DNA from: Prevotella sp.
GTDB lineage: Bacteria; Bacteroidota; Bacteroidia; Bacteroidales; Bacteroidaceae
DNA: 64,000 nt
NCBI GenBank assembly: GCA_017417465.1
Contig: JAFPZD010000107.1
Span: 45,438-109,437 of the forward strand
Direction: 5' to 3'
A program made the position numbers and the translations under genes. Shown piece by piece: positions 872 through 59,048 of this stretch (position 1 is the stretch's first letter; every line of letters begins with the position of its first letter). Below the pieces are notes generated by a model. It did not search any database. It had not been told where the DNA came from and saw nothing but the letters and a program-made list of their open reading frames with translations.

Positions 872-964
872 CAACCCACCACCTACCCCTCCCAAAGGGA
901 GAAACCCACCCCCAGACCCTCACAAGGGCAACCCACCCCCTACCCCTCCCCAAGGGAGGGGAGG
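872..964. repeat. Three copies of the CCCACCCCC / CTCCCCAAGGGAGGGG palindromic repeat
   Basis: Three degenerate copies (about 872-900, 902-928, 929-964) of a unit that starts AACCCACCCCC and ends in the palindrome CCCCTCCCCAAGGGAGGGG. The third copy is the best preserved. The same unit occurs as an inverted pair around the DUF559 gene at 58.06 and 58.52 kb, so this is a dispersed family. It fills most of the gap between der and the lipoprotein gene. Confidence 0.85.
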
Positions 965-3890: not shown

Positions 3891-4008
3891 CACGAAGCTT
3901 CTGTCGGCCTTAGCGACCATCAGGCCGCTACGAGAACTCTCCATGAGAGTGCCGCGTAAAAGGGTTGCAAGCCCCCCATTTTTGATATGGATGGCGGCAG
4001 TAAAAGTT

Positions 4009-4092
4009 AAAACTGCGCCAACGTTTGATAAAACTGCGCCTTTGTTTGATAAAACTGCGTCAGTGTTTGATAAAACTGCGCCTTTGTTTGCT
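4009..4092. repeat. Four 21-bp tandem repeats
   Basis: Four copies of AAAACTGCGCCnnnGTTTGAT, exactly 21 bases apart, differing mainly in the three-base centre (AAC, TTT, AGT, TTT). They sit in the gap of about 700 bases after lptB. The rest of 3891-4167 shows no gene; a weak CGGCCT/AGGCCG hairpin near 3905 lacks a T run. Confidence 0.85.
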
Positions 4093-23654: not shown

Positions 23655-24680
23655 ATGAACGAGAACACTCAACTCACGATGAAGGACATCGCCCGCGAAC
23701 TGGGTATTTCGGTGGCTACTGTCTCAAGGGCACTGAAGGATTCGCCACGCATCTCGGCCGAGCAGCGCAAGCGCATCCAAGACTATGCCCGCGCTCACAA
23801 CTTCACGCCAAACCTCATTGCCGAGTCGCTGCGCCACTCCAAGGTGCAGCCTATGAAGGTCATCGGCGTCATCGTGCCTGAACTGGTCCACTACTACTTC
23901 GCCTCGATCCTCAAAGGCATCGAGGAGGAGGCCGAGGCCCACGGCTACCGTGTGATGGTGGGACAGAGTGGCGAGCAGTACGAGCGCGAGGTGAAGCTCT
24001 GCCGCTCGTTCTACGAGAACAAGGTCTGCGGCATCATCGTCTCACAAGCCAAGGACACGCTGCAGTACGACCACTTCAAGCAGCTCATCGCCTCAGGCGT
24101 GCCACTGGTGTTCTACGACCGCATCTGCACAGGCGTCAACGCCAGCCGCGTCGTCGTCGACGACTACATGGGCGCCTTCAACGCCGTGACCTACCTCATC
24201 AACACTGGGTGCAGGCACATCGCCTTCTACGGACTGCCCATGCACCTTGAGATTGCCAAGAACCGCTTCAACGGCTATAAGGACGCGCTGCTGAAGCACG
24301 GCCTACGCTACGACGAGCGTCTGGTGCGCATCTGCGACAACCGCGACGATGCTGAGGTCATCACGCCTGAGCTGTTCAACGACGAGCCATACCCTGATGC
24401 GTTCTTCGCCGTCAACGACGACACGGCCATCGGCATCCTCTACACTGTCAAGCGCATGGGTCTCCGCGTGCCTGACGACATCTCCATCTGCGGATTCACC
24501 AACGGCGAGCGTGCCATCGCCTGCGACCCCATGCTCACCACCGTCGAGCAGCGCGGCCTGCGCGTCGGCGAGGAGGCCGCCAACATCCTCATCAGCCAAG
24601 TCGAGGGCACACTGCCCCACGACCGCATCGAGCGCCGCATCGTGCGCACACGGCTCATCATCCGCGGAACGACGCGGTGA
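23655..24680 (+). CDS. LacI-family transcriptional regulator of the starch locus
   Basis: 341 residues. N-terminal LacI helix-turn-helix (MKDIARELGISVATVSRALK, about residues 10-29) and hinge helix, then a periplasmic-binding-protein-like sensor domain. The DNA contact sequence (VATVSRAL) fits recognition of a palindrome with central CG, as found in the promoter gap. It is divergent from susC and upstream of an MFS sugar transporter, so it probably controls both according to a sugar effector, most likely maltose or an oligosaccharide. The start ATG is 23 bases after the -7 box. Confidence 0.9.
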   Translation: MNENTQLTMKDIARELGISVATVSRALKDSPRISAEQRKRIQDYARAHNFTPNLIAESLRHSKVQPMKVIGVIVPELVHYYFASILKGIEEEAEAHGYRVMVGQSGEQYEREVKLCRSFYENKVCGIIVSQAKDTLQYDHFKQLIASGVPLVFYDRICTGVNASRVVVDDYMGAFNAVTYLINTGCRHIAFYGLPMHLEIAKNRFNGYKDALLKHGLRYDERLVRICDNRDDAEVITPELFNDEPYPDAFFAVNDDTAIGILYTVKRMGLRVPDDISICGFTNGERAIACDPMLTTVEQRGLRVGEEAANILISQVEGTLPHDRIERRIVRTRLIIRGTTR

Positions 24681-24683
24681 TTG

Positions 24684-24951
24684 GCATCGGTTGGGTTGGG
24701 GGGCATTGGTTTGACACGGTTTTGACACGGTTGAGTGGTGGGAAGCATCGGTTTGACACGGTTTTGACACGGTTGGGTTGGGAGGAGCATCGGTTTGACA
24801 CGGTTTTAACACGGTTGGGTGTTGGGAGAAGCATCGGTTTAACACGGTTTTAACACGGTTGAGTGGTGGGAAGCATCGGTTTGACACGGTTTTGACACGG
24901 TTGGGTGTTGGGAGGAGCATCGGTTTGACACGGTTTGACACGGTTTGGCGG
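24684..24951. repeat. Left array of GCATCGGTTTGACACGGTT words (inverted relative to the right array)
   Basis: Starting right after the regulator stop, about seven degenerate copies of a unit of roughly 40 bases: GCATCGGTTTGACACGG then TTTTGACACGGTT then a G/T-rich joint. The complementary words form a second array on the other side of the GxxExxY gene. No variable spacers are present, so it is not a CRISPR array. It makes up most of a 334-base gap; the remaining AT-rich part (24952-25014) just precedes the next gene. Confidence 0.9.
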
Positions 24952-25014
24952 TGTAAGAAGGAATAAAATAATAAAATAGAACAATATATATAAGAAAGGA
25001 ATACTTTAGTTGTT

Positions 25015-25407
25015 ATGCTTTTATATCAGGAATTGTCTGACAAGGTTCTAAGAGCCTACAACAACGTGCAGAATGCATTAGGTAAAGGACTTGCTGAAAA
25101 AGTCTATGAGAATGCACTTTGCATAGAATTCGACCAGATGGGGCTGTCGTATGAGAGACAGAAGCCTTTGCAGGTCGAATACAAAGGTCATATCGTAGGA
25201 AACTACGTGGCTGATTTCATGATAGAAGGAAAAATCATTATCGAGCTAAAAGCTGCCGTTTCAATCACCCCTGAACATATTGCACAAACCCTTAACTATA
25301 TCAATCTGACTCATTGCAAAGTAGGCTATATTCTAAATTTCACTCAACAGACAGGCCCTGGTTATAAACGTCTTCTTGGCTTAGCCGCAAGATGTGAAGA
25401 CCAATAG
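25015..25407 (+). CDS. GxxExxY protein, PD-(D/E)XK nuclease-like
   Basis: 130 residues. The family-naming motif is GLAEKVY (Gly25, Glu28, Tyr31). A PD-(D/E)XK-like core follows: ADF (Asp67), then IIELKA (Glu77, Lys79), and a C-terminal strand-helix ending FTQQTGPGYKRLL. These residues are the expected metal-binding and catalytic set, although activity of GxxExxY proteins has not, to my knowledge, been shown. It is markedly more AT-rich than its neighbours. It lies between the LacI-type regulator and the MFS transporter, flanked by inverted arrays of one repeat family, which suggests insertion into a formerly continuous regulator-transporter pair. Confidence 0.85.
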   Translation: MLLYQELSDKVLRAYNNVQNALGKGLAEKVYENALCIEFDQMGLSYERQKPLQVEYKGHIVGNYVADFMIEGKIIIELKAAVSITPEHIAQTLNYINLTHCKVGYILNFTQQTGPGYKRLLGLAARCEDQ

Positions 25408-25410
25408 CAC

Positions 25411-25615
25411 CCCAAACCGTGTCAAACCATATAAACCGTGTCAAACCGTGTTAAACCGATGCCACACCAAACCGTGTCAAACCGTGTTAAACCGATGCCA
25501 CAACCAACCGTGTCAAACCGTGTTAAACCGATGCCACAACCAACCGTGTCAAACCGTGTTAAAACGATGCCACAACCAAACCGATGCCACAACCAAACCG
25601 ATGCCACAAACTAAC
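25411..25615. repeat. Right array of AACCGTGT / AACCGATGCCACA words
   Basis: About six copies of a 36-37-base unit, AACCGTGTCAAACCGTGTT then AAACCGATGCCACA, shortening to a 16-18-base unit at the end. It is the reverse complement of the left array family at 24684-24951 and stops about 15 bases before the MFS start codon. Confidence 0.9.
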
Positions 25616-35444: not shown

Positions 35445-35544
35445 AATTCCCGAGATTCACAGTCTAATTCCCGAGATTCATAGTCTAATTCCCGAGATTC
35501 ACAGTTTAATTCCCGAGATTCATAGTTTAACTCCCGAGATTCAA
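35445..35544. repeat. Five 22-bp tandem repeats (CCCGAGATTCA)
   Basis: Five copies of TAATTCCCGAGATTCACAGT, 22 bases apart. The joint alternates CACAG/CATAG and drifts from TCTA to TTTA along the array. This lies in the 909-base gap between the Omp28-type gene and rlpA. No gene is seen in the gap; 35143-35444 is AT-rich and holds nothing recognisable. Confidence 0.88.
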
Positions 35545-35576: not shown

Positions 35577-35750
35577 ATATACGGTTTTCATGTCGTAAGT
35601 ATACGGTTTTCATGTCGTAAGTATGCCGTTTACATGTCGTAAGTATGCCGTTTACATGTCGTAAGTATGCCATTTACATGTCGTAAGTATGCCATTTACA
35701 AGTCGTAAGTATGCCATTTACAAGTCGTAAACCTATGACTTACGTATTAG
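35577..35750. repeat. Seven 22-bp tandem repeats (TGTCGTAAGTATGCC)
   Basis: Seven copies of a 22-base unit, ATGTCGTAAGTATGCCGTTT and variants. The variable part changes stepwise from ACGGTTTTCAT to GCCGTTTACAT to GCCATTTACAT to GCCATTTACAA. It lies 30 bases after a second, unrelated array of the same period. From 35751 to 35962 there is nothing recognisable. Confidence 0.88.
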
Positions 35751-39245: not shown

Positions 39246-40550
39246 TTACTTAAATCGGTAGCCGAGGAGCAGCTGTGCGCAGTCGGCCTTCGCAAAGCGG
39301 TGGGCCTTGATGTTATAGCCTACGAAGAGGCGGTCGCGGGTGAAGGGGAAGGCATAGCGCAGGCCGATGTTCTGGAAGAATCGTCCGTCCTCAGTGCGTC
39401 CCAAGAATCCCGTCTGCTTGTGCAGGTAGACGCCAGCTCCCACGGCGAGCGAGAAGTGGTGGTAGTAGAGCTCGTGGCGCAGGCTGAGGCCAAGGATGTG
39501 AGGCGAATAGCGCTCGTCGTGGCGCCCCAGCTTCTGGTCAAGGTCGCGATGGCTATAGACGTAGTCGGCGTAGGTGTAGTCGATGGCCACGCCACTGGCA
39601 TGCATGCGATGATAGCGATACATGGGGGCCACCATCGTGGCAAAAAAGCCGTAGAGGGGGCAGTGGTTGGCGTGGTAGACATTGAAATGGTCGAGCAGCG
39701 ACTTCATGCCGAAGGCCGCCGTTACTTCCACGAAGGGTCCTTTCTTGATTTCGGGAATTTCCGGATATTCTGGGTTTTCCGGATAATCTGGATTTTCCGG
39801 ATTAATCGGATTATCCGGCTTGCTCTTCCCTCCAAAGTCATACTGCACGGTCAGCGACGGTCCGATGGTGTTCACGCCCAGGTTGGGGCGTTTCAGCGAG
39901 CCATTGCTGAAATGCTTGAAGTCGACACCCAGCACGGTGCTCCACGTTGGTGACAGCCGATAGCGGGCATAGAAGCCGATATTGACAAAGATAGACAGCG
40001 GTGCGCCTATCAGCTCATTGTCGATGTTCGTATGGGCATCGAAGGGGTGCGGACAGTAGCCCACGCCATTCTGCAGGTCAACGCCGAGGTTCCATCGCTG
40101 GCGCCTGACCACATCGTACTGCACACCGCCATAGAGCGCCCAGAGGCTGCCAATACGCGACTCGTAAGGCGTAGTGCCCTTGTGCATGTGGATATGGCTG
40201 AAGTCGCCGTAGAGAAGACCAGCCTGCAGCGTTGGGCGGTTCAGCCCCTTTTCGTAAGGGTCGTTGTCGGCAGCGTCGGCCTGCCATTTCGCCCGCAGCT
40301 CGTACATGCTCGTGCCATAGCTATGGAGGATGGCTCCTGCATACGGCCCCTTCGGAATCAGATAGCTCATGTTGGCAATGGCACCCAGCGACCAGTGCCC
40401 GTGATGCTGGGCTGGCGAGGCAGCATCGGCGACCGTGTCGGCGTCGGCCACCAAGCCAGAATCGACGTCGTTGGCAAAACTCTGCATAACTGTTAGTAGC
40501 ATCAGCATTGCCAGTGTGCCATGCAGAAAGTATCTATTTATGCTTCTCAT
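39246..40550 (-). CDS. PagL-like (lipid A 3-O-deacylase family) outer membrane protein
   Basis: About 434 residues from the ATG at 40550; an upstream TTG at 40577 lies in the promoter and is excluded. Signal peptide LAMLMLLTVMQSFA. A large beta-barrel domain follows, with VDFKHFSNGSLKRPNLGVN, which matches the His-Ser motif of PagL deacylases (HFSNx5NxG). A tandem linker (PENPDYPENPEYPEIPEI) at about residues 255-275 splits the protein; a second barrel-like part (PFVEVTAAFGMKSLLDHF to the C-terminal LLLGYRFK) follows. PagL removes a fatty acid from lipid A. The two-part arrangement is about 2-3 times the length of PagL, so the catalytic role is inferred. Confidence 0.75.
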   Translation of the reverse strand: MRSINRYFLHGTLAMLMLLTVMQSFANDVDSGLVADADTVADAASPAQHHGHWSLGAIANMSYLIPKGPYAGAILHSYGTSMYELRAKWQADAADNDPYEKGLNRPTLQAGLLYGDFSHIHMHKGTTPYESRIGSLWALYGGVQYDVVRRQRWNLGVDLQNGVGYCPHPFDAHTNIDNELIGAPLSIFVNIGFYARYRLSPTWSTVLGVDFKHFSNGSLKRPNLGVNTIGPSLTVQYDFGGKSKPDNPINPENPDYPENPEYPEIPEIKKGPFVEVTAAFGMKSLLDHFNVYHANHCPLYGFFATMVAPMYRYHRMHASGVAIDYTYADYVYSHRDLDQKLGRHDERYSPHILGLSLRHELYYHHFSLAVGAGVYLHKQTGFLGRTEDGRFFQNIGLRYAFPFTRDRLFVGYNIKAHRFAKADCAQLLLGYRFK

Positions 40551-41814: not shown

Positions 41815-43155
41815 ATGAAGAAACTAATCATCTTACTGACGGCTGTTTGCGCCACCCATGCAGCAACAGCCCAGAAACAGTGGACACTGGAAGACTGCAT
41901 TAGCTACGCGCTGCAGAACAACATCACCCTCCAGAAAGCAAAGCTCCAACAGTTGTCGGCCGCCGAGGACCTGAAAGGTTCGCAAGCCGCCCTGCTGCCA
42001 TCGATGTCGGCAGGCAGCAATCAGAGCATCGGCTATAGCCCGTGGAAGGATGCCGGCATTGCCACTGTCACCAACGGCCAGGTGAACTCGAAGGTAAACA
42101 AGAGCTACTACAATGGCTCCTACTCGGTCAATGCCCAGTGGACCGTCTGGAATGGCAACCGCAACCATAATAACATAAAGGTCAACGCGTTAGCCGAGCA
42201 ACAGGCAGAGTTGACCGCTGCTGAGACGGCCAACTCCATACAGGAGCGCATCGCCCAGCTCTACGTACAATGCCTCTACCTGAACGAGGCCATCAAGGTA
42301 AGCCAGTCGAGCCTCGAGACCAGCCGCAAAAACGAGGAACGCGGCCAGCAGATGGTCGAAGTGGGCAAAATGTCGAAAGCCGACCTCTCGCAGCTCACGG
42401 CCCAGCGTGCCACCGACGAATACAACGTTGTGGAGGCGCAGAGTCAGTTGGCCAACTATAAGCTTCAGCTGAAGCAACAACTCGAACTGACCGATGGCGA
42501 GGCATTCGACATCGCCGTGCCGCCAACCACCGATGAGCAGGCCCTCGCCGATATTCCTGCCCTGCAGGACGTCTATGAGCAGGCCCTGCTTGGCCGCCCA
42601 GAGATCGAGAGCTCACGGCTTGCCATCGAGAGCAGCAAGCTCAACCTGTCGATTGCCAAGGCGGGAAGACTGCCGACGATCAACTTGTCAGGAGGCTTCG
42701 GCACCAGCACCAACTCACTGTCGTCGAACAGCTGGGGCACGCAGATGAAGACCAACTTCGACATGTCAGGCGGCCTGTCACTTAGCATCCCCATCTTCGA
42801 CCAGCGACAGACGAAGACGGCTGTCAGCAAAGCGCGCATCCAGCAGCAGCAAGCCCTGCTCGACCTTCAGGACAAGCAGAAACAGCTCTATCAGACCATC
42901 GAGGGCTATTGGCTCGACGCACATACCAACCAGCAGAAGTTCCGTGCTGCCCAGCTGTCGGTGGATAGCGAGCAGCAGAGCTACGACCTGCTCTCAGAGC
43001 AATTCCGCTTAGGTCTGAAGAACATCGTAGAACTGATGACTGGCAAGGACAAACTGCTGCAAGCACAGCAGAACCGTCTGCAGTCGAAATACATGACCAT
43101 CCTGAACCGCCAGCTGCTGCTATTCTACAAAGGCTCAGTCGTCACCAAAGAGTGA
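41815..43155 (+). CDS. TolC-family outer membrane efflux protein
   Basis: About 446 residues from the ATG at 41815 (MKKLIILLTAVCA). Signal peptide ends AATAQ. Two outer-membrane-efflux (OEP) repeats of coiled-coil helices and strands follow: LEDCISYALQNNITLQKAKLQ at the first and DIPALQDVYEQALLGRPEIE at the second. It forms a trimeric channel across the outer membrane, and is the exit duct for the MacA-MacB pump encoded next. The upstream in-frame ATG at 41743 lies before the promoter and is not used. A short-word array fills the gap to macA. Confidence 0.92.
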   Translation: MKKLIILLTAVCATHAATAQKQWTLEDCISYALQNNITLQKAKLQQLSAAEDLKGSQAALLPSMSAGSNQSIGYSPWKDAGIATVTNGQVNSKVNKSYYNGSYSVNAQWTVWNGNRNHNNIKVNALAEQQAELTAAETANSIQERIAQLYVQCLYLNEAIKVSQSSLETSRKNEERGQQMVEVGKMSKADLSQLTAQRATDEYNVVEAQSQLANYKLQLKQQLELTDGEAFDIAVPPTTDEQALADIPALQDVYEQALLGRPEIESSRLAIESSKLNLSIAKAGRLPTINLSGGFGTSTNSLSSNSWGTQMKTNFDMSGGLSLSIPIFDQRQTKTAVSKARIQQQQALLDLQDKQKQLYQTIEGYWLDAHTNQQKFRAAQLSVDSEQQSYDLLSEQFRLGLKNIVELMTGKDKLLQAQQNRLQSKYMTILNRQLLLFYKGSVVTKE

Positions 43156-43157
43156 AA

Positions 43158-43210
43158 TAATAAATCGTGAAATAGTAAATAGTGAAATAGTCAAATAGTA
43201 AATCGTCAAA
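43158..43210. repeat. AAATAGTAAATCGT word array before macA
   Basis: Five degenerate copies of AAATAGTnAAAT and AAATCGTnAAAT words between the TolC-family gene and macA, ending directly at the macA ATG. Confidence 0.7.
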
Positions 43211-43211
43211 T

Positions 43212-44411
43212 ATGAAAGGGTTGTTAAATAAAAAGTTGTTGGCCTGCCTGGTAGGAATTATAGCTTGTGTGGCCGTGGTCGCCTTCATCGTGTCAGGCGG
43301 CAAGAAGAAAGAAACCGTTTCATTTCAAACGGCACGTGTTGAACGTGGGAATATCCAGAACAGTATCACCGCTACGGGCACCATCGAGCCAGTGACCAGC
43401 GTCACCGTTGGTACGCAGGTGTCAGGTATCGTGTCGCGACTCTATGTCGACTACAATTCTGTCGTGAAGAAGGGGCAGGTCATCGCTGAGCTCGACCGCA
43501 CCAACCTCATCAGCGAGCTCAACGCCCAAAAGGCCAGTCTCTCGACGGCACAGAGCCAGCTGAACTACCAAGAGGCCAATCACAACAGATACAAGACCCT
43601 CTACGAGAAGGGACTGGTCAGCGCCGATGAGTACGAGAATGCACGCCTCACCTGGCAGCAAGCCAAAAACCAGGTAGCCACAGCCCGTGAGAGCGTGCAG
43701 CGCGCCCAGACGAACCTAGGCTATGCCACCATCACCAGCCCCATCGACGGTGTCGTGCTCTACAAGGCTGTGGAGGAGGGTCAGACCGTCGCTGCCTCGT
43801 TCAACACCCCTGAGCTGTTTACCATTGCCAAAGACCTCACCGACATGCGCGTCATAGCCGATATCGACGAAGCCGACATTGGTGGCGTGAAGGAGGGACA
43901 GCGTGTGTCGTTCACCGTCGACGCATTCCCTGACGACCATTTTGAGGGGCGTGTGACGCAGGTGCGCCAACAGGCCACCACTGAGAGTAACGTCGTGACC
44001 TACGAGGTGGTTATCTCAGCCCCCAACAACGACCTGAAGCTGAAGCCAGGCCTGACGGCTAACGTCACCATCTTCACACTTGAGAAGAACGACGTGTTGA
44101 CAGTGCCAGCAAAGGCCCTGCGCTTCATGCCCGTCGAGGCCATCCTCGACAAGGGTCAGACCATCGCCGACGTGGAAGCTCCACAGAAAGTATGGACACT
44201 GGAAGGCAACACCTTCAAGGCTTACGCCGTGGAGACAGGCACCACCAACGGTCTGATGACTGAGATCGTCAGCGGCATTGCCGAAGGCACTGAGGTGCTC
44301 ACCGACTTCGAGATCAGCGGTGGCGATATGCCTCAGAACGAGCAGGCTGGCAACCCATTCATGCCAAGGCCAAGAGGAAACAGGAACCAGCAAAATCAAC
44401 AGAAGAAGTAA
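43212..44411 (+). CDS. MacA-like periplasmic adaptor protein
   Basis: 399 residues. A single N-terminal membrane anchor (ACLVGIIACVAVVAFIVSGG) precedes a membrane-fusion fold. The biotinyl-lipoyl-like half motifs are TATGTIEPVTSVTVGTQVSG and ITSPIDGVVLYKAVEEGQTV. A coiled-coil hairpin lies between them and a beta-barrel after. It bridges MacB to the TolC-type channel. Its stop overlaps the ATPase start by one base. Confidence 0.92.
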   Translation: MKGLLNKKLLACLVGIIACVAVVAFIVSGGKKKETVSFQTARVERGNIQNSITATGTIEPVTSVTVGTQVSGIVSRLYVDYNSVVKKGQVIAELDRTNLISELNAQKASLSTAQSQLNYQEANHNRYKTLYEKGLVSADEYENARLTWQQAKNQVATARESVQRAQTNLGYATITSPIDGVVLYKAVEEGQTVAASFNTPELFTIAKDLTDMRVIADIDEADIGGVKEGQRVSFTVDAFPDDHFEGRVTQVRQQATTESNVVTYEVVISAPNNDLKLKPGLTANVTIFTLEKNDVLTVPAKALRFMPVEAILDKGQTIADVEAPQKVWTLEGNTFKAYAVETGTTNGLMTEIVSGIAEGTEVLTDFEISGGDMPQNEQAGNPFMPRPRGNRNQQNQQKK

Positions 44412-56892: not shown

Positions 56893-58062
56893 ATGAACAA
56901 CAATAAGAGACTACTCACCGTCGCCGCCAGCTGCCTCGCAGCCATTGCCGCTACCTACGCCGACGACGACAAGCTGACAACATTCAACCCCGTGGAGCAT
57001 GCCGTCATCTCACAGACGATTGCTCCCGATGCCCGCTCGGCAGGTATGGGCGATGTGGGCGCAGCCACCGACCCTGACGTCAACTCGCAGGCTTGGAACC
57101 TGGCAAAGTACCCCTTCTGCATCAGCCGCGCTGGCGTGGCACTCAACTACACCCCGTGGCTCCGCCAGCTGGTGAACGACATCGACCTGGCCTATCTCGC
57201 AGGCTACTACCGCATCGGTGAGCGTGGTGCGCTCAGCGGCTCGCTGCGCTACTTCTCGCTCGGCGAAGTCTACACCAGTGATGCCTACGACATGACGGTT
57301 CGCCCCTATGAGATGTCGCTCGATGCAGCCTACTCGATGATGCTCAGCGAGACGTTCTCGTTCGGCGTTGGCCTGCGCTGGATTTACAGCGACCTGCGCT
57401 ACGACTATAGCGAGGACTCCAAACCAGCCTCTGCCTTCGCAGCCGACATTGCCATGTACTACAACAACTACGTGATGATGGGCAACCGCGAGTGCCAGTT
57501 AGGTCTGGGTGCCGTCCTTTCGAACATGGGTAGTAAGATCTCCTATTATGGCGACGAGGAGAGCCAGTTCATTCCTGCCAACCTGCGTCTGGGTGCCTCG
57601 CTGATGATTCCTGTCGACGAGTACAACCGCTTCAGCATCTCGGCCGATGCCAACAAGCTGTTGGTGCCCACCGTGCCTTTGCAGGAGGTCGACGAGACGA
57701 ATAGCGACTATCAGGACCGTGTGCGTAAAGAGTACAGTGATATCGGCTCCATCAACGGCATGTTCAAGAGCTTCAGCGATGCCCCCGGTGGTTTCAAGGA
57801 GGAGCTCGAGGAGGTACAGTGGAGCGTCGGTGCCGAATATGTCTACCACGACCAGTTCTCACTGCGTGCCGGCTATCACCATGAGTCAGAGTCAAAAGGT
57901 AACCGCAAGTACTTCACCGTTGGTGGCGGCTTCCGCATGAGTGTCTTCTCGCTCGATGTGGGCTATGTCATCTCCACTGCCCAAAGCAACCCACTCGACC
58001 AGACGCTGCGCTTCACCCTGTCGTTCGACATGGATGGCATCAAGGATCTGTTCCGTAAGTAA
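56893..58062 (+). CDS. porV: Type IX secretion outer membrane protein PorV
   Basis: 389 residues. Signal peptide (SCLAAIAATYA), then a FadL/OMPP1-like beta-barrel with the PorV/LptO family signature VISQTIAPDARSAGMGDVG and AATDPDVNSQAWNLAKYPF. C-terminal strand ends in FTLSFDMDGIKDLFRK. PorV collects cargo from the secretion channel and presents it to PorU. It follows the porU pair by about 30 bases. Its TAA stop is the first three bases of the left inverted repeat of the DUF559 element. Confidence 0.93.
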   Translation: MNNNKRLLTVAASCLAAIAATYADDDKLTTFNPVEHAVISQTIAPDARSAGMGDVGAATDPDVNSQAWNLAKYPFCISRAGVALNYTPWLRQLVNDIDLAYLAGYYRIGERGALSGSLRYFSLGEVYTSDAYDMTVRPYEMSLDAAYSMMLSETFSFGVGLRWIYSDLRYDYSEDSKPASAFAADIAMYYNNYVMMGNRECQLGLGAVLSNMGSKISYYGDEESQFIPANLRLGASLMIPVDEYNRFSISADANKLLVPTVPLQEVDETNSDYQDRVRKEYSDIGSINGMFKSFSDAPGGFKEELEEVQWSVGAEYVYHDQFSLRAGYHHESESKGNRKYFTVGGGFRMSVFSLDVGYVISTAQSNPLDQTLRFTLSFDMDGIKDLFRK

Positions 58063-58559
58063 CCCACCCCCTTCCCCTCCCCAAGGGAGGGGAGTTTGAT
58101 TAGAAAAGAGCAATGAAATATAAATTTGAAACAACTGACGCTTCGACTTACCAGCTATTGTTGGATAAGGCACGAGAGATGAGGAATCATCCCACCGAGG
58201 CAGAAAGCGCATTGTGGAATTATCTTTCTGGTGATAAGATGGGGGTGCACTTTCGTCGGCAACATCCCGTCTTTGGCTATATTCCCGACTTTATCGCCTT
58301 GAAGGAACAACTTATTATTGAAATAGACGGCGGCTATCATTTTGAGGGGGAGCAACCAGACGTTGATGCCCAACGCACTCAATGGCTCAATAAAGCTGGG
58401 TATCTCGTCTTACGTTTTACCAATGAAGAGGTGCTATGCGATATTGACAATGTGCTTGAACAAATCGCAGATACTTTGAACTCTATCCACATCCAACCAA
58501 CTTCCGCCTCCAAGACTAACCAAGCTCCCCTCCCTTGGGGAGGGGCTGGGGGTGGGTTA
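58060..58559. mobile_element. DUF559 element bounded by 38-bp inverted repeats
   Basis: The left repeat (58060-58097, from TAACCCACCCCC to AGGGGAGTTT) and the right repeat (58522-58559) are reverse complements with three mismatches over 38 bases. Each contains the palindrome CTCCCCTTGGGGAGGGG type. Between them lies one DUF559 reading frame. The same unit occurs without a gene at 872-964, and a fragment (GGGGGTGGGTTA) after dinB at 60186-60199. The left end overlaps the porV stop and the right end runs into codon about 2-3 of ispF. No target-site duplication is clear. Confidence 0.75.
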
Positions 58560-59048
58560 CGAGTTGGATTCGGATTCGACGTGCATCAGTTGGTTCCTGA
58601 CCGCGAGCTGTGGATAGGGGGCATCAAGATTGAGCACACCTTAGGACTCCTCGGCCACAGCGATGCCGATGTGCTCATCCATGCCATCTGCGATGCTCTG
58701 CTCGGAGCCGCCAACATGCGCGATATTGGCTATCACTTTCCCGACACCTCCGACGAGACGCTCGGCATGGACAGCAAGATTATTCTGCGTAAGAGCATTG
58801 AACTGATTGCTACGAAAGGCTATCGGCTGGGGAATATCGATGCAACCATCTGTGCCGAACGGCCCAAGATGAATCCACACATCCCTGAGATGCAACGCGT
58901 CATGGCCGATGTCATCGGCTGCGACCCCGATCAGATTTCCATCAAAGCCACTACCACAGAGCGGCTGGGCTTCACTGGTCGGCAGGAGGGCATTGCTGCC
59001 TACGCCACAGTCTTATTAGAGAAGCAGGACACTCCCAACAACTCCTAA
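58113..59048 (+). CDS. ispF: DUF559 nuclease-like domain fused in frame to IspF (2-C-methyl-D-erythritol 2,4-cyclodiphosphate synthase)
   Basis: 311 residues in one frame. Residues 1-125 are DUF559, a Vsr-like PD-(D/E)XK family: AESALWNYL, IPDF (Asp59), IIEIDGGYH (Glu70, Asp72). Residues 126-149 are the translated repeat (APLPWGGAGGG). IspF starts at Arg150: RVGFGFDVHQL (metal ligands Asp156 and His158), then GHSDADVLIHA and ATTTERLGFTGRQEGIAAYA. IspF forms the cyclodiphosphate in the non-mevalonate isoprenoid pathway. No ATG, GTG or TTG lies in frame between the linker and Arg150 (nearest upstream TTG is at 58476), so IspF has lost its own start. Processing or internal initiation is unknown. 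Confidence 0.85.
   Translation: MKYKFETTDASTYQLLLDKAREMRNHPTEAESALWNYLSGDKMGVHFRRQHPVFGYIPDFIALKEQLIIEIDGGYHFEGEQPDVDAQRTQWLNKAGYLVLRFTNEEVLCDIDNVLEQIADTLNSIHIQPTSASKTNQAPLPWGGAGGGLRVGFGFDVHQLVPDRELWIGGIKIEHTLGLLGHSDADVLIHAICDALLGAANMRDIGYHFPDTSDETLGMDSKIILRKSIELIATKGYRLGNIDATICAERPKMNPHIPEMQRVMADVIGCDPDQISIKATTTERLGFTGRQEGIAAYATVLLEKQDTPNNS

What the first reader, a model, noticed from the sequence alone, without database searches (positions are those of the whole stretch)
24684..25615. GxxExxY nuclease-like gene enclosed by inverted arrays of one repeat family
Left array words GCATCGGTTTGACACGGTT and right array words AACCGTGTCAAACCGATGC are reverse complements. The AT-rich GxxExxY gene sits between them, splitting a regulator gene from its MFS transporter. 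The gene has the full PD-(D/E)XK residue set (Asp67, Glu77, Lys79). This is the same layout as the DUF559 element but with an unrelated repeat and a different nuclease-like family.
Basis: partly seen in the sequence, partly recalled or inferred. Interest (0 to 1): 0.85.

Follow-up and report, generated by a model that had tools for sequence, protein, structure and literature searches.

The report
Nuclease gene inside its own repeats
A small DNA-cutting-enzyme-like gene sits between mirror-image arrays of a short repeat, gene-less copies of which are scattered through the same genome, and the same layout surrounds most of the relatives examined from many bacterial phyla, so it looks like an undescribed kind of self-spreading repeat system.

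Summary
A GxxExxY gene (PF13366/TIGR04256, complete PD-(D/E)XK residues) at 25015-25407 lies between inverted arrays of one ~10-bp-phased unit (CACGGTT), between a LacI-type regulator and an MFS gene. Of 193 usable GxxExxY loci (205 given; genus, phylum, named genomes of many phyla), 136 have inverted flanks above a score that 13 of 1453 control positions pass; 156 have that or a heptamer motif on both sides, 37 neither. The repeat word differs between loci but tracks the protein. Gene-less copies are dispersed. In 65 genus genomes CACGGTT pairs number 9-102 only in the four whose junction gene has CACGGTT arms, 0-2 in the other 61; one of the four has none outside its element. The LacI-MFS junction is empty in most relatives examined, or holds another GxxExxY or a four-helix-bundle gene with other arrays. 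Best reading: an enzyme-plus-cognate-hairpin system that works like a REPtron (RAYT plus REPINs) but with a Cas4/RecB-type PD-(D/E)XK nuclease. Movement and cleavage are inferred, not shown. DUF559 and four-helix (23S IVS-type) genes show the same enclosure.

The parts
24688..24953 (+). left arm: tandem array, unit ~42 nt; each unit holds GCATCGGTTTGACACGGTTTTGACACGGTT, i.e. three ~10-bp-phased CACGGTT-like heptamers
   Evidence: TRF and repeat search; heptamer positions
25015..25407 (+). GxxExxY protein, 130 aa, PD-(D/E)XK nuclease family PF13366 / TIGR04256
25413..25609 (-). right arm: inverted copy of the same unit (36-nt unit AAACCGTGTCAAACCGTGTTAAACCGATGCCACAAC, then 17-nt AAACCGATGCCACAACC)
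23655..24680 (+). LacI-type regulator upstream (host gene, junction partner)
   Evidence: PF13377/PF00356
25632..26942 (+). MFS transporter downstream (host gene, junction partner)
   Evidence: PF07690/PF13347
58164..58478 (+). DUF559 core of a second, parallel element in the window; inverted arms (CCCACCCCC..CCCTCCCCAAGGGAGGGGAG) at about 58059-58103 and 58516-58560

Best explanation
The unit from about 24684 to 25615 is the enzyme-bearing copy of a dispersed hairpin-repeat family. The GxxExxY protein is a small PD-(D/E)XK DNA nuclease of the Cas4/RecB/lambda-exonuclease type that recognises its own phased heptamer array (here CACGGTT), probably when the two inverted arms pair as a hairpin or cruciform. 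By cutting there it lets the array-bounded segment be copied or inserted elsewhere, with the gene or, more often, without it. Gene-less hairpins with the same unit are then its non-autonomous copies, as REPINs are to a RAYT transposase. Shown here: the anatomy; generality across phyla; word-to-enzyme matching; dispersed gene-less copies; conserved catalytic residues; presence and absence of the element at one junction. Inferred: recognition of the array by the protein, cleavage, and movement.
For: Enclosure is general: 136 of 193 loci score above 14 against 13 of 1453 control positions, and 0 of 70 genes with intergenic space on both sides in the named loci do. The word tracks the protein at different sites: overlap >=0.3 in 0.438 of 16 genus pairs at 70-80 % identity and 2 of 2 above 80 %, against 0.006 of 651 below 30 % and 0.011 of 1287 at 30-40 %; 0 of 500 shuffles reached the observed mean. 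Cognate matching: CACGGTT pairs 102, 83, 12 and 9 in the four genomes whose junction gene has CACGGTT arms, 0-2 in the other 61; of 94 genus loci collected only L001 and L157 have such arms, L306 has one copy. CACAGAG pairs occur in 39 of 148 phylum genomes and 37 of these 39 carry GxxExxY, against 74 of 148 overall (Fisher p 1e-11). Gene-less hairpins: ~85-bp family in G000; in G531 two gene-less hairpins share their ends TAACGACAACT..AGTTGTCGTTA with the gene-bearing copy. The arm core is conserved as sequence: heptamer identity between arms 736/797, spacer 118/196 (43 loci). Active-site residues are invariant; dN is 0.09-0.23 between junction orthologues while dS could not be computed in 14 of 15 pairs, read here as saturation. 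With one query, 8 of 72,556 plasmid and 0 of 50,697 phage records match, so it is mainly chromosomal, as RAYTs are.
Against: No movement was seen and no target-site duplication was found; the closest relative at the junction is only 82 % identical, so no clean empty-site comparison was possible. 37 of 193 loci show neither signal. Some armed genes have no gene-less copies: G318 has none outside its own element, and in ~380-398-kb samples of G288, G028 and G023 four of eight words have none, three have one place and the G288 word only its own element. Word tracking is weaker in the named set (overlap >=0.3 in 0.200 of 10 pairs at 70-80 % and 0 of 2 above 80 %). The phylum-wide association is not corrected for relatedness; the reversed control pattern also rings in 7 of 148 genomes. 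A different mobiliser elsewhere in the genome was not searched for.
Confidence: 0.55

Rival explanations
1. RNA-level element of the intervening-sequence (IVS) type: the arms pair in the transcript, RNase III or the encoded enzyme trims the stem, and the insertion is tolerated in an operon. The protein acts on, or is expressed from, the excised stem-loop.
For: IVS of Coxiella has an ORF in the loop of 28-bp terminal inverted repeats, tandem heptameric repeats in front of the ORF, and is cut by RNase III (PMC4990558 passages). Its protein family (TIGR02436) shows the same arrayed enclosure here, 27 of 30 loci, and one occupies the same LacI-MFS junction. Three gene-less hairpins folded as RNA give z -8.2 to -9.6, though any inverted repeat would.
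Against: Spacers between heptamers match much less well than the cores, which points to recognition by sequence rather than to pairing alone. In the window the two arms have units of different length (42 and 36 nt), so they pair only in part. The enzyme's best structural matches are mostly DNA nucleases.
Confidence: 0.2
2. Passenger reading: the phased arrays arise and spread by replication slippage, recombination or an unrelated transposase, and GxxExxY genes merely tend to sit in such repeat-rich intergenic places.
For: Phased arrays without any gene are seen by eye in intergenic regions of the genus, including at the same junction. The two arms carry tandem units of different length, so they amplified independently.
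Against: The word tracks the protein at different sites, and CACGGTT arrays abound only where the cognate-armed gene is present. Other genes with intergenic space on both sides are not enclosed, 0 of 70. The arms are inverted and near the gene on both sides, median 27.5 and 20 bp.
Confidence: 0.12
3. The protein is a sequence-specific DNA-binding factor or host-beneficial nuclease (chromosome organisation, repair, control of its own expression), and the dispersed arrays are its binding sites rather than its offspring.
For: Core heptamers are conserved more than spacers; the protein is conserved while synonymous sites are not; mainly chromosomal.
Against: A regulon does not readily explain gene-less hairpins sharing their ends with the gene-bearing copy, nor the turnover of words between species and of elements at one junction.
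Confidence: 0.1

Closest known systems
REPtron: RAYT (TnpA-REP, Y1 HUH transposase) with cognate REP/REPIN hairpins
   Same: Single enzyme gene next to its own repeat type; several enzyme-repeat pairs per genome; gene-less inverted-repeat hairpins dispersed in intergenic space; co-evolution of enzyme and repeat (PMC3116915 passages; PMC8266576 abstract and outline).
   Different: The enzyme is a PD-(D/E)XK nuclease, not an HUH tyrosine transposase. Arms are arrays of ~10-bp-phased heptamers, often tandemly amplified, not single short palindromes.
23S rRNA intervening sequence (IVS) with S23p four-helix-bundle ORF
   Same: One small ORF in the loop of terminal inverted repeats; heptameric repeats next to the ORF (PMC4990558 passages).
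   Different: Different protein family; here between two protein-coding genes, not in rRNA; RNA processing unknown.
MITE / insertion sequence
   Same: Inverted ends, gene-bearing and gene-less copies.
   Different: No known transposase in the element; no target-site duplication found; ends are arrays. BrickBuilt of Porphyromonas gingivalis (PMC4596501 passages) is a Bacteroidales MITE with 23-nt tandem repeats and ends like IS5-family elements; no GxxExxY was mentioned in the passages seen.
DUF559 element in the same window
   Same: Small nuclease-like gene between inverted copies of its own dispersed word; 22 of 27 usable genus loci above score 14 (28 of 33 fetched were given, five partial matches left out).
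   Different: Unrelated word (palindromic CCCTCCC..GGGAGGG) and separate Pfam family.
Cas4 / RecB / lambda-exonuclease-type nucleases
   Same: Fold and active site: D, ExK and QxxxY (that QxxxY marks this group is recalled).
   Different: 130 aa, stand-alone, enclosed by arrays. Whether it holds an iron-sulphur cluster as Cas4 does was not examined.

Membership tests
GxxExxY / PDDEXK_3 (TIGR04256, PF13366) | HMM score over curated cut-off | tested here: met
   127 and 128 bits against cut-offs 35 and 22
GxxExxY / PDDEXK_3 (TIGR04256, PF13366) | GxxExxY motif and PD-(D/E)XK residues | tested here: met
   invariant in 28 and 89 sequences
REPtron (RAYT/REPIN) | Y1 HUH transposase | tested here: not met
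   only PF13366 over cut-off in the protein
REPtron (RAYT/REPIN) | enzyme gene flanked by its own repeat | tested here: met
REPtron (RAYT/REPIN) | dispersed gene-less hairpins of the cognate repeat | tested here: met
   not for every word
REPtron (RAYT/REPIN) | processing of cognate single-stranded repeat in vitro | not testable with these tools
   needs protein
23S IVS | insertion in 23S rRNA gene | tested here: not met
   between lacI-type and MFS genes
23S IVS | S23p four-helix-bundle ORF | tested here: not met
   ORF is PF13366
23S IVS | RNase III excision | not testable with these tools
   needs RNA
MITE / IS | terminal inverted repeats | tested here: met
MITE / IS | target-site duplication at an empty-site comparison | tested here: inconclusive
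   nearest relatives 82 % identical; junctions not alignable base by base
Known defence or phage families | PADLOC or PHROGs match | tested here: not met
   0 families at E 0.01 in each

The most novel reading that the evidence does not exclude
A guild of unrelated small single-gene families (GxxExxY PD-(D/E)XK nucleases, DUF559/Vsr-like proteins, and the S23/IVS four-helix proteins) each own a private, fast-diversifying population of inverted phased-repeat hairpins. They form a general class of minimal selfish elements in bacteria, of which the 23S rRNA IVS is only the subset that landed in rRNA. Enzyme specificity and repeat word co-evolve on the time scale of species.
Probability: 0.35. Interest if true: 0.95.

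Novelty: new variant of a known kind. Interest (0 to 1): 0.85.

Why it matters
GxxExxY is a common annotation in this phylum (74 of 148 genomes here), yet I found the name in only 2 papers of the open-access library, neither about its function in the passages seen. The layout gives it a testable role. If right, it explains where many dispersed CACAGAG-type and related intergenic hairpins come from, adds a second enzyme fold to repeat dissemination besides HUH transposases, and supplies many naturally matched enzyme-word pairs with which to learn how a 130-residue nuclease reads a phased heptamer.

Tried and rejected
Chance repeats: rejected by controls. Direct instead of inverted flanks: direct scores above 16 occur in 26 of 91 genus, 8 of 30 phylum and 16 of 72 named loci; in the four such loci printed (L016, L018, L020, L041) they are arrays or hairpin stretches repeated on both sides of the gene. 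Known RNA family: no Rfam match reached its gathering score; the thirteen rows at E up to 0.1 are twelve of microRNA families and one sRNA. Defence and phage families: none. Phage or plasmid carriage: 0 of 50,697 phage and 8 of 72,556 plasmid records with one query; one confirmed viral contig from a narrow pattern, not examined.

Neutral control family PF00313 failed because the genus almost lacks it; gene-like ORF controls were used instead. The 28 genus-locus genes are not a clean control: three of the five above 14 are GxxExxY genes. In one search the start-codon rule put some arms inside the predicted gene, so named loci are undercounted there; searches use match edges. In one search only loci scoring above 14 were used, and shared sites were screened by outer-flank alignment only for pairs above 50 % identity within the genus or 70 % overall.

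dN/dS could not be computed for 14 of 15 GxxExxY pairs. GxxExxY synonymous divergence looked larger than that of the adjacent lacI-type gene in the one computable pair (3.06 against 0.44); with 126 codons I do not build on it. The word matrix on ~380-398-kb pieces was positive for GACAACT in G531 (11 hits in 5 places, one of them the element itself; none in three other genomes). Of eight other words looked for in their own genomes, four had no place, three had one (one of these words, C[AG]TAAAT, also rings 1-2 times in each other genome, and CACAGATT twice in G531) and the G288 word had only its own element.

Literature: GxxExxY 2 papers, PDDEXK_3 0, PF13366/TIGR04256/three repeat words 1 unrelated, listing only; DUF559 14 papers listed, titles and abstract starts seen, none visibly on repeats. 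Searches gave the IVS paper and MITE papers, none visibly on GxxExxY; PMC4679880 (TAACTGA heptamers, Beggiatoaceae) was seen in the listing only.

Full report

IT IS GENERAL. The window's genome has six GxxExxY genes. The five others also have inverted repeats around them, each with a different word: L002 has arrays on both sides; L003 has a large array on one side and a single copy on the other; L004 (26 nt, 92 %), L005 (29 nt, 79 %) and L006 (38 nt, 87 %) have short single pairs, and L006 falls below the cut. In the named set 52 of 73 loci with enough flank exceed the 99th percentile of 1276 control positions in inverted alignment, and 17 of 73 do so in direct alignment. With uniform edges, 193 of 205 loci were usable: 136 score above 14 (73 of 91 genus, 16 of 30 phylum, 47 of 72 named), 67 have at least two C[AG]CN[AG]AG heptamers on both sides facing the gene, 156 have either, 37 neither; 13 of 1453 control positions score above 14 and 1 has the motif. 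None of 70 other genes with at least 80 bp of intergenic space on both sides in the named loci scores above 14. CACAGAG occurs in 45 % of 155 flanks of named loci read towards the gene, against 0.9 % of 2986 control flanks, and flank self-similarity stands out most at 10 bp. Loci of the genus are not independent: some sit at the same site in several species.

THE WORD IS PRIVATE BUT FOLLOWS THE ENZYME. Within one genus the words range from CACGGTT, AACGGAC and CACAGAG to CGTAAAT, GACATAAAG, GAGAATT and ACATAATAACA. At one orthologous site, four species (L026, L029, L033, L034) carry at least three words (ACGGATT, AAAGATT, CACGAATT-like) with inverted scores of 19-23.5, although L034 falls below the cut. 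For genus pairs at different sites, word overlap rises with protein identity; for pairs at 45 % identity or more the mean overlap is 0.108 (290 pairs) against 0.056 for shuffled arms, reached by 0 of 500 shuffles; the trend is weaker among named loci. Between the two arms of one locus the heptamer cores agree in 736 of 797 aligned positions and the spacers in 118 of 196 (43 loci). This favours recognition by sequence over pairing alone, although the alignment itself favours matches.

GENE-LESS COPIES. In the window's genome the paired word CACGGTT occurs 102 times against 1 for the reversed control pattern. By my count of the 100 hits listed, these lie in 35 places more than 1 kb apart, one of them the window element and at least one (L188) apparently coding sequence. 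L206 and L207 share the outer GCATCGGTT, and L198 is an inward inverted pair with no gene between. A second, ~85-bp hairpin family with CACAGAG-type arms is dispersed in the same genome; it shares GCTGCGCA next to its CTCCGTG-type arm with the array beside another GxxExxY gene of that genome, L003. In G531, of four gene-less GACAACT places in 398 kb, two are hairpins with the same ends as the gene-bearing element, one is a hairpin with other ends and one a single arm. In 65 genomes of the genus, CACGGTT pairs number 102 in G000, 83 in G034, 12 in G318 and 9 in G239, the four whose junction gene has CACGGTT arms, and 0-2 in the other 61, including G288 (orthologue with another word) and G032 (orthologue with decayed arms). 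Among the 94 genus loci collected, only L001 (G000) and L157 (G034) have CACGGTT arms; L306 has one copy. G318, G239, G288, G531 and G362 were added because of their junctions. Counted from the listing, hits outside the own element are 92, 76, 0 and 7 for G000, G034, G318 and G239, so one of the four has no dispersed copies. Across 148 phylum genomes CACAGAG pairs occur in 39, of which 37 have GxxExxY; GxxExxY is in 74 of 148; the reversed pattern rings in 7 (Fisher p 1e-11; not corrected for relatedness). Not all words have dispersed copies.

ONE JUNCTION, MANY TENANTS. Loci were fetched for 30 of 50 genus genomes with the MFS gene: 3 hold GxxExxY beside it, 26 do not (12-261 bp between the genes) and one is cut by a contig end. 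The three fall in one six-member group of the MFS tree (support 90/76) without being sisters, so one gain with losses or several gains are both possible. In a second set of 30 loci, the best matches among 398 genomes (five of these genomes are also in the first set), five hold the orthologue, one of them (L343) with single-unit arms; L331 holds a different GxxExxY (33 % identity, word GACAACT), L329 a truncated GxxExxY, L338 a four-helix-bundle gene with TAATGCAT-type arrays, and L325, L334 and L337, by eye, phased arrays alone.

HOW IT MOST LIKELY WORKS. I read the gene and arms as the enzyme-bearing member of a dispersed hairpin family, maintained and spread by a nuclease that reads its cognate phased heptamers. 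The logic is that of REPtrons, in which a RAYT acts on cognate REP/REPIN hairpins (PMC3116915 passages; PMC8266576 abstract and outline), but with an unrelated enzyme fold. Arm pairing would present the array as a hairpin; the exact cut and the route of insertion are open. The chief rival is an RNA-level element like the 23S IVS, whose ORF also sits behind heptameric repeats inside terminal inverted repeats (PMC4990558 passages). Two further gene families show the same enclosure in this genus: four-helix TIGR02436, 27 of 30 loci, and DUF559, 22 of 27 usable of 28 given (33 fetched, five partial matches left out). The layout may therefore define a guild rather than one family.

NOVELTY. In the open-access library GxxExxY appears in two papers; the passages seen are a gene table and a remark on annotation. 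Searches for the Pfam name and accession, the NCBIfam accession and three repeat words found nothing relevant. Subscription papers and preprints were not searched. I file it as a new variant of a known kind: it works like a REPtron but fails that family's defining enzyme test.

Noticed in passing
window 58059-58560: DUF559 gene between inverted copies of CCCACCCCC..CCCTCCCCAAGGGAGGGGAG; 22 of 27 usable genus DUF559 loci have inverted flanks above 14; a similar word stands at window 872-958.
   Followed up: partly
L354-L383 (TIGR02436 loci of the genus) and L338:2868-3296: Four-helix-bundle (23S IVS-type) genes lie between inverted short-period arrays in 27 of 30 genus loci; one occupies the LacI-MFS junction.
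   Followed up: partly
L257, L258 (G133:C1:160000-161600 and 214900-216300): CTCTGTG..CACAGAG hairpins stand on both sides of genes that do not look like GxxExxY, so each gene is bracketed by inward arms.
   Followed up: no
L207:1440-2100 (G000:C103): CACGGTT arms facing outward around a ~400-bp segment that is itself an inverted repeat, perhaps another nested element.
   Followed up: no
window 4008-4090, 35445-35543, 35584-35730, 39749-39818, 43146-43217: Further short tandem arrays with periods from 8 to 42 bp, not examined.
   Followed up: no
L325, L334, L337, L167, L179, L181 (LacI-MFS junctions without a gene): Gene-less short-period arrays with other words (CCTAGGAAAA, CCGAAATA, ACTATAG and the like) fill the same junction in relatives, seen by eye.
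   Followed up: no
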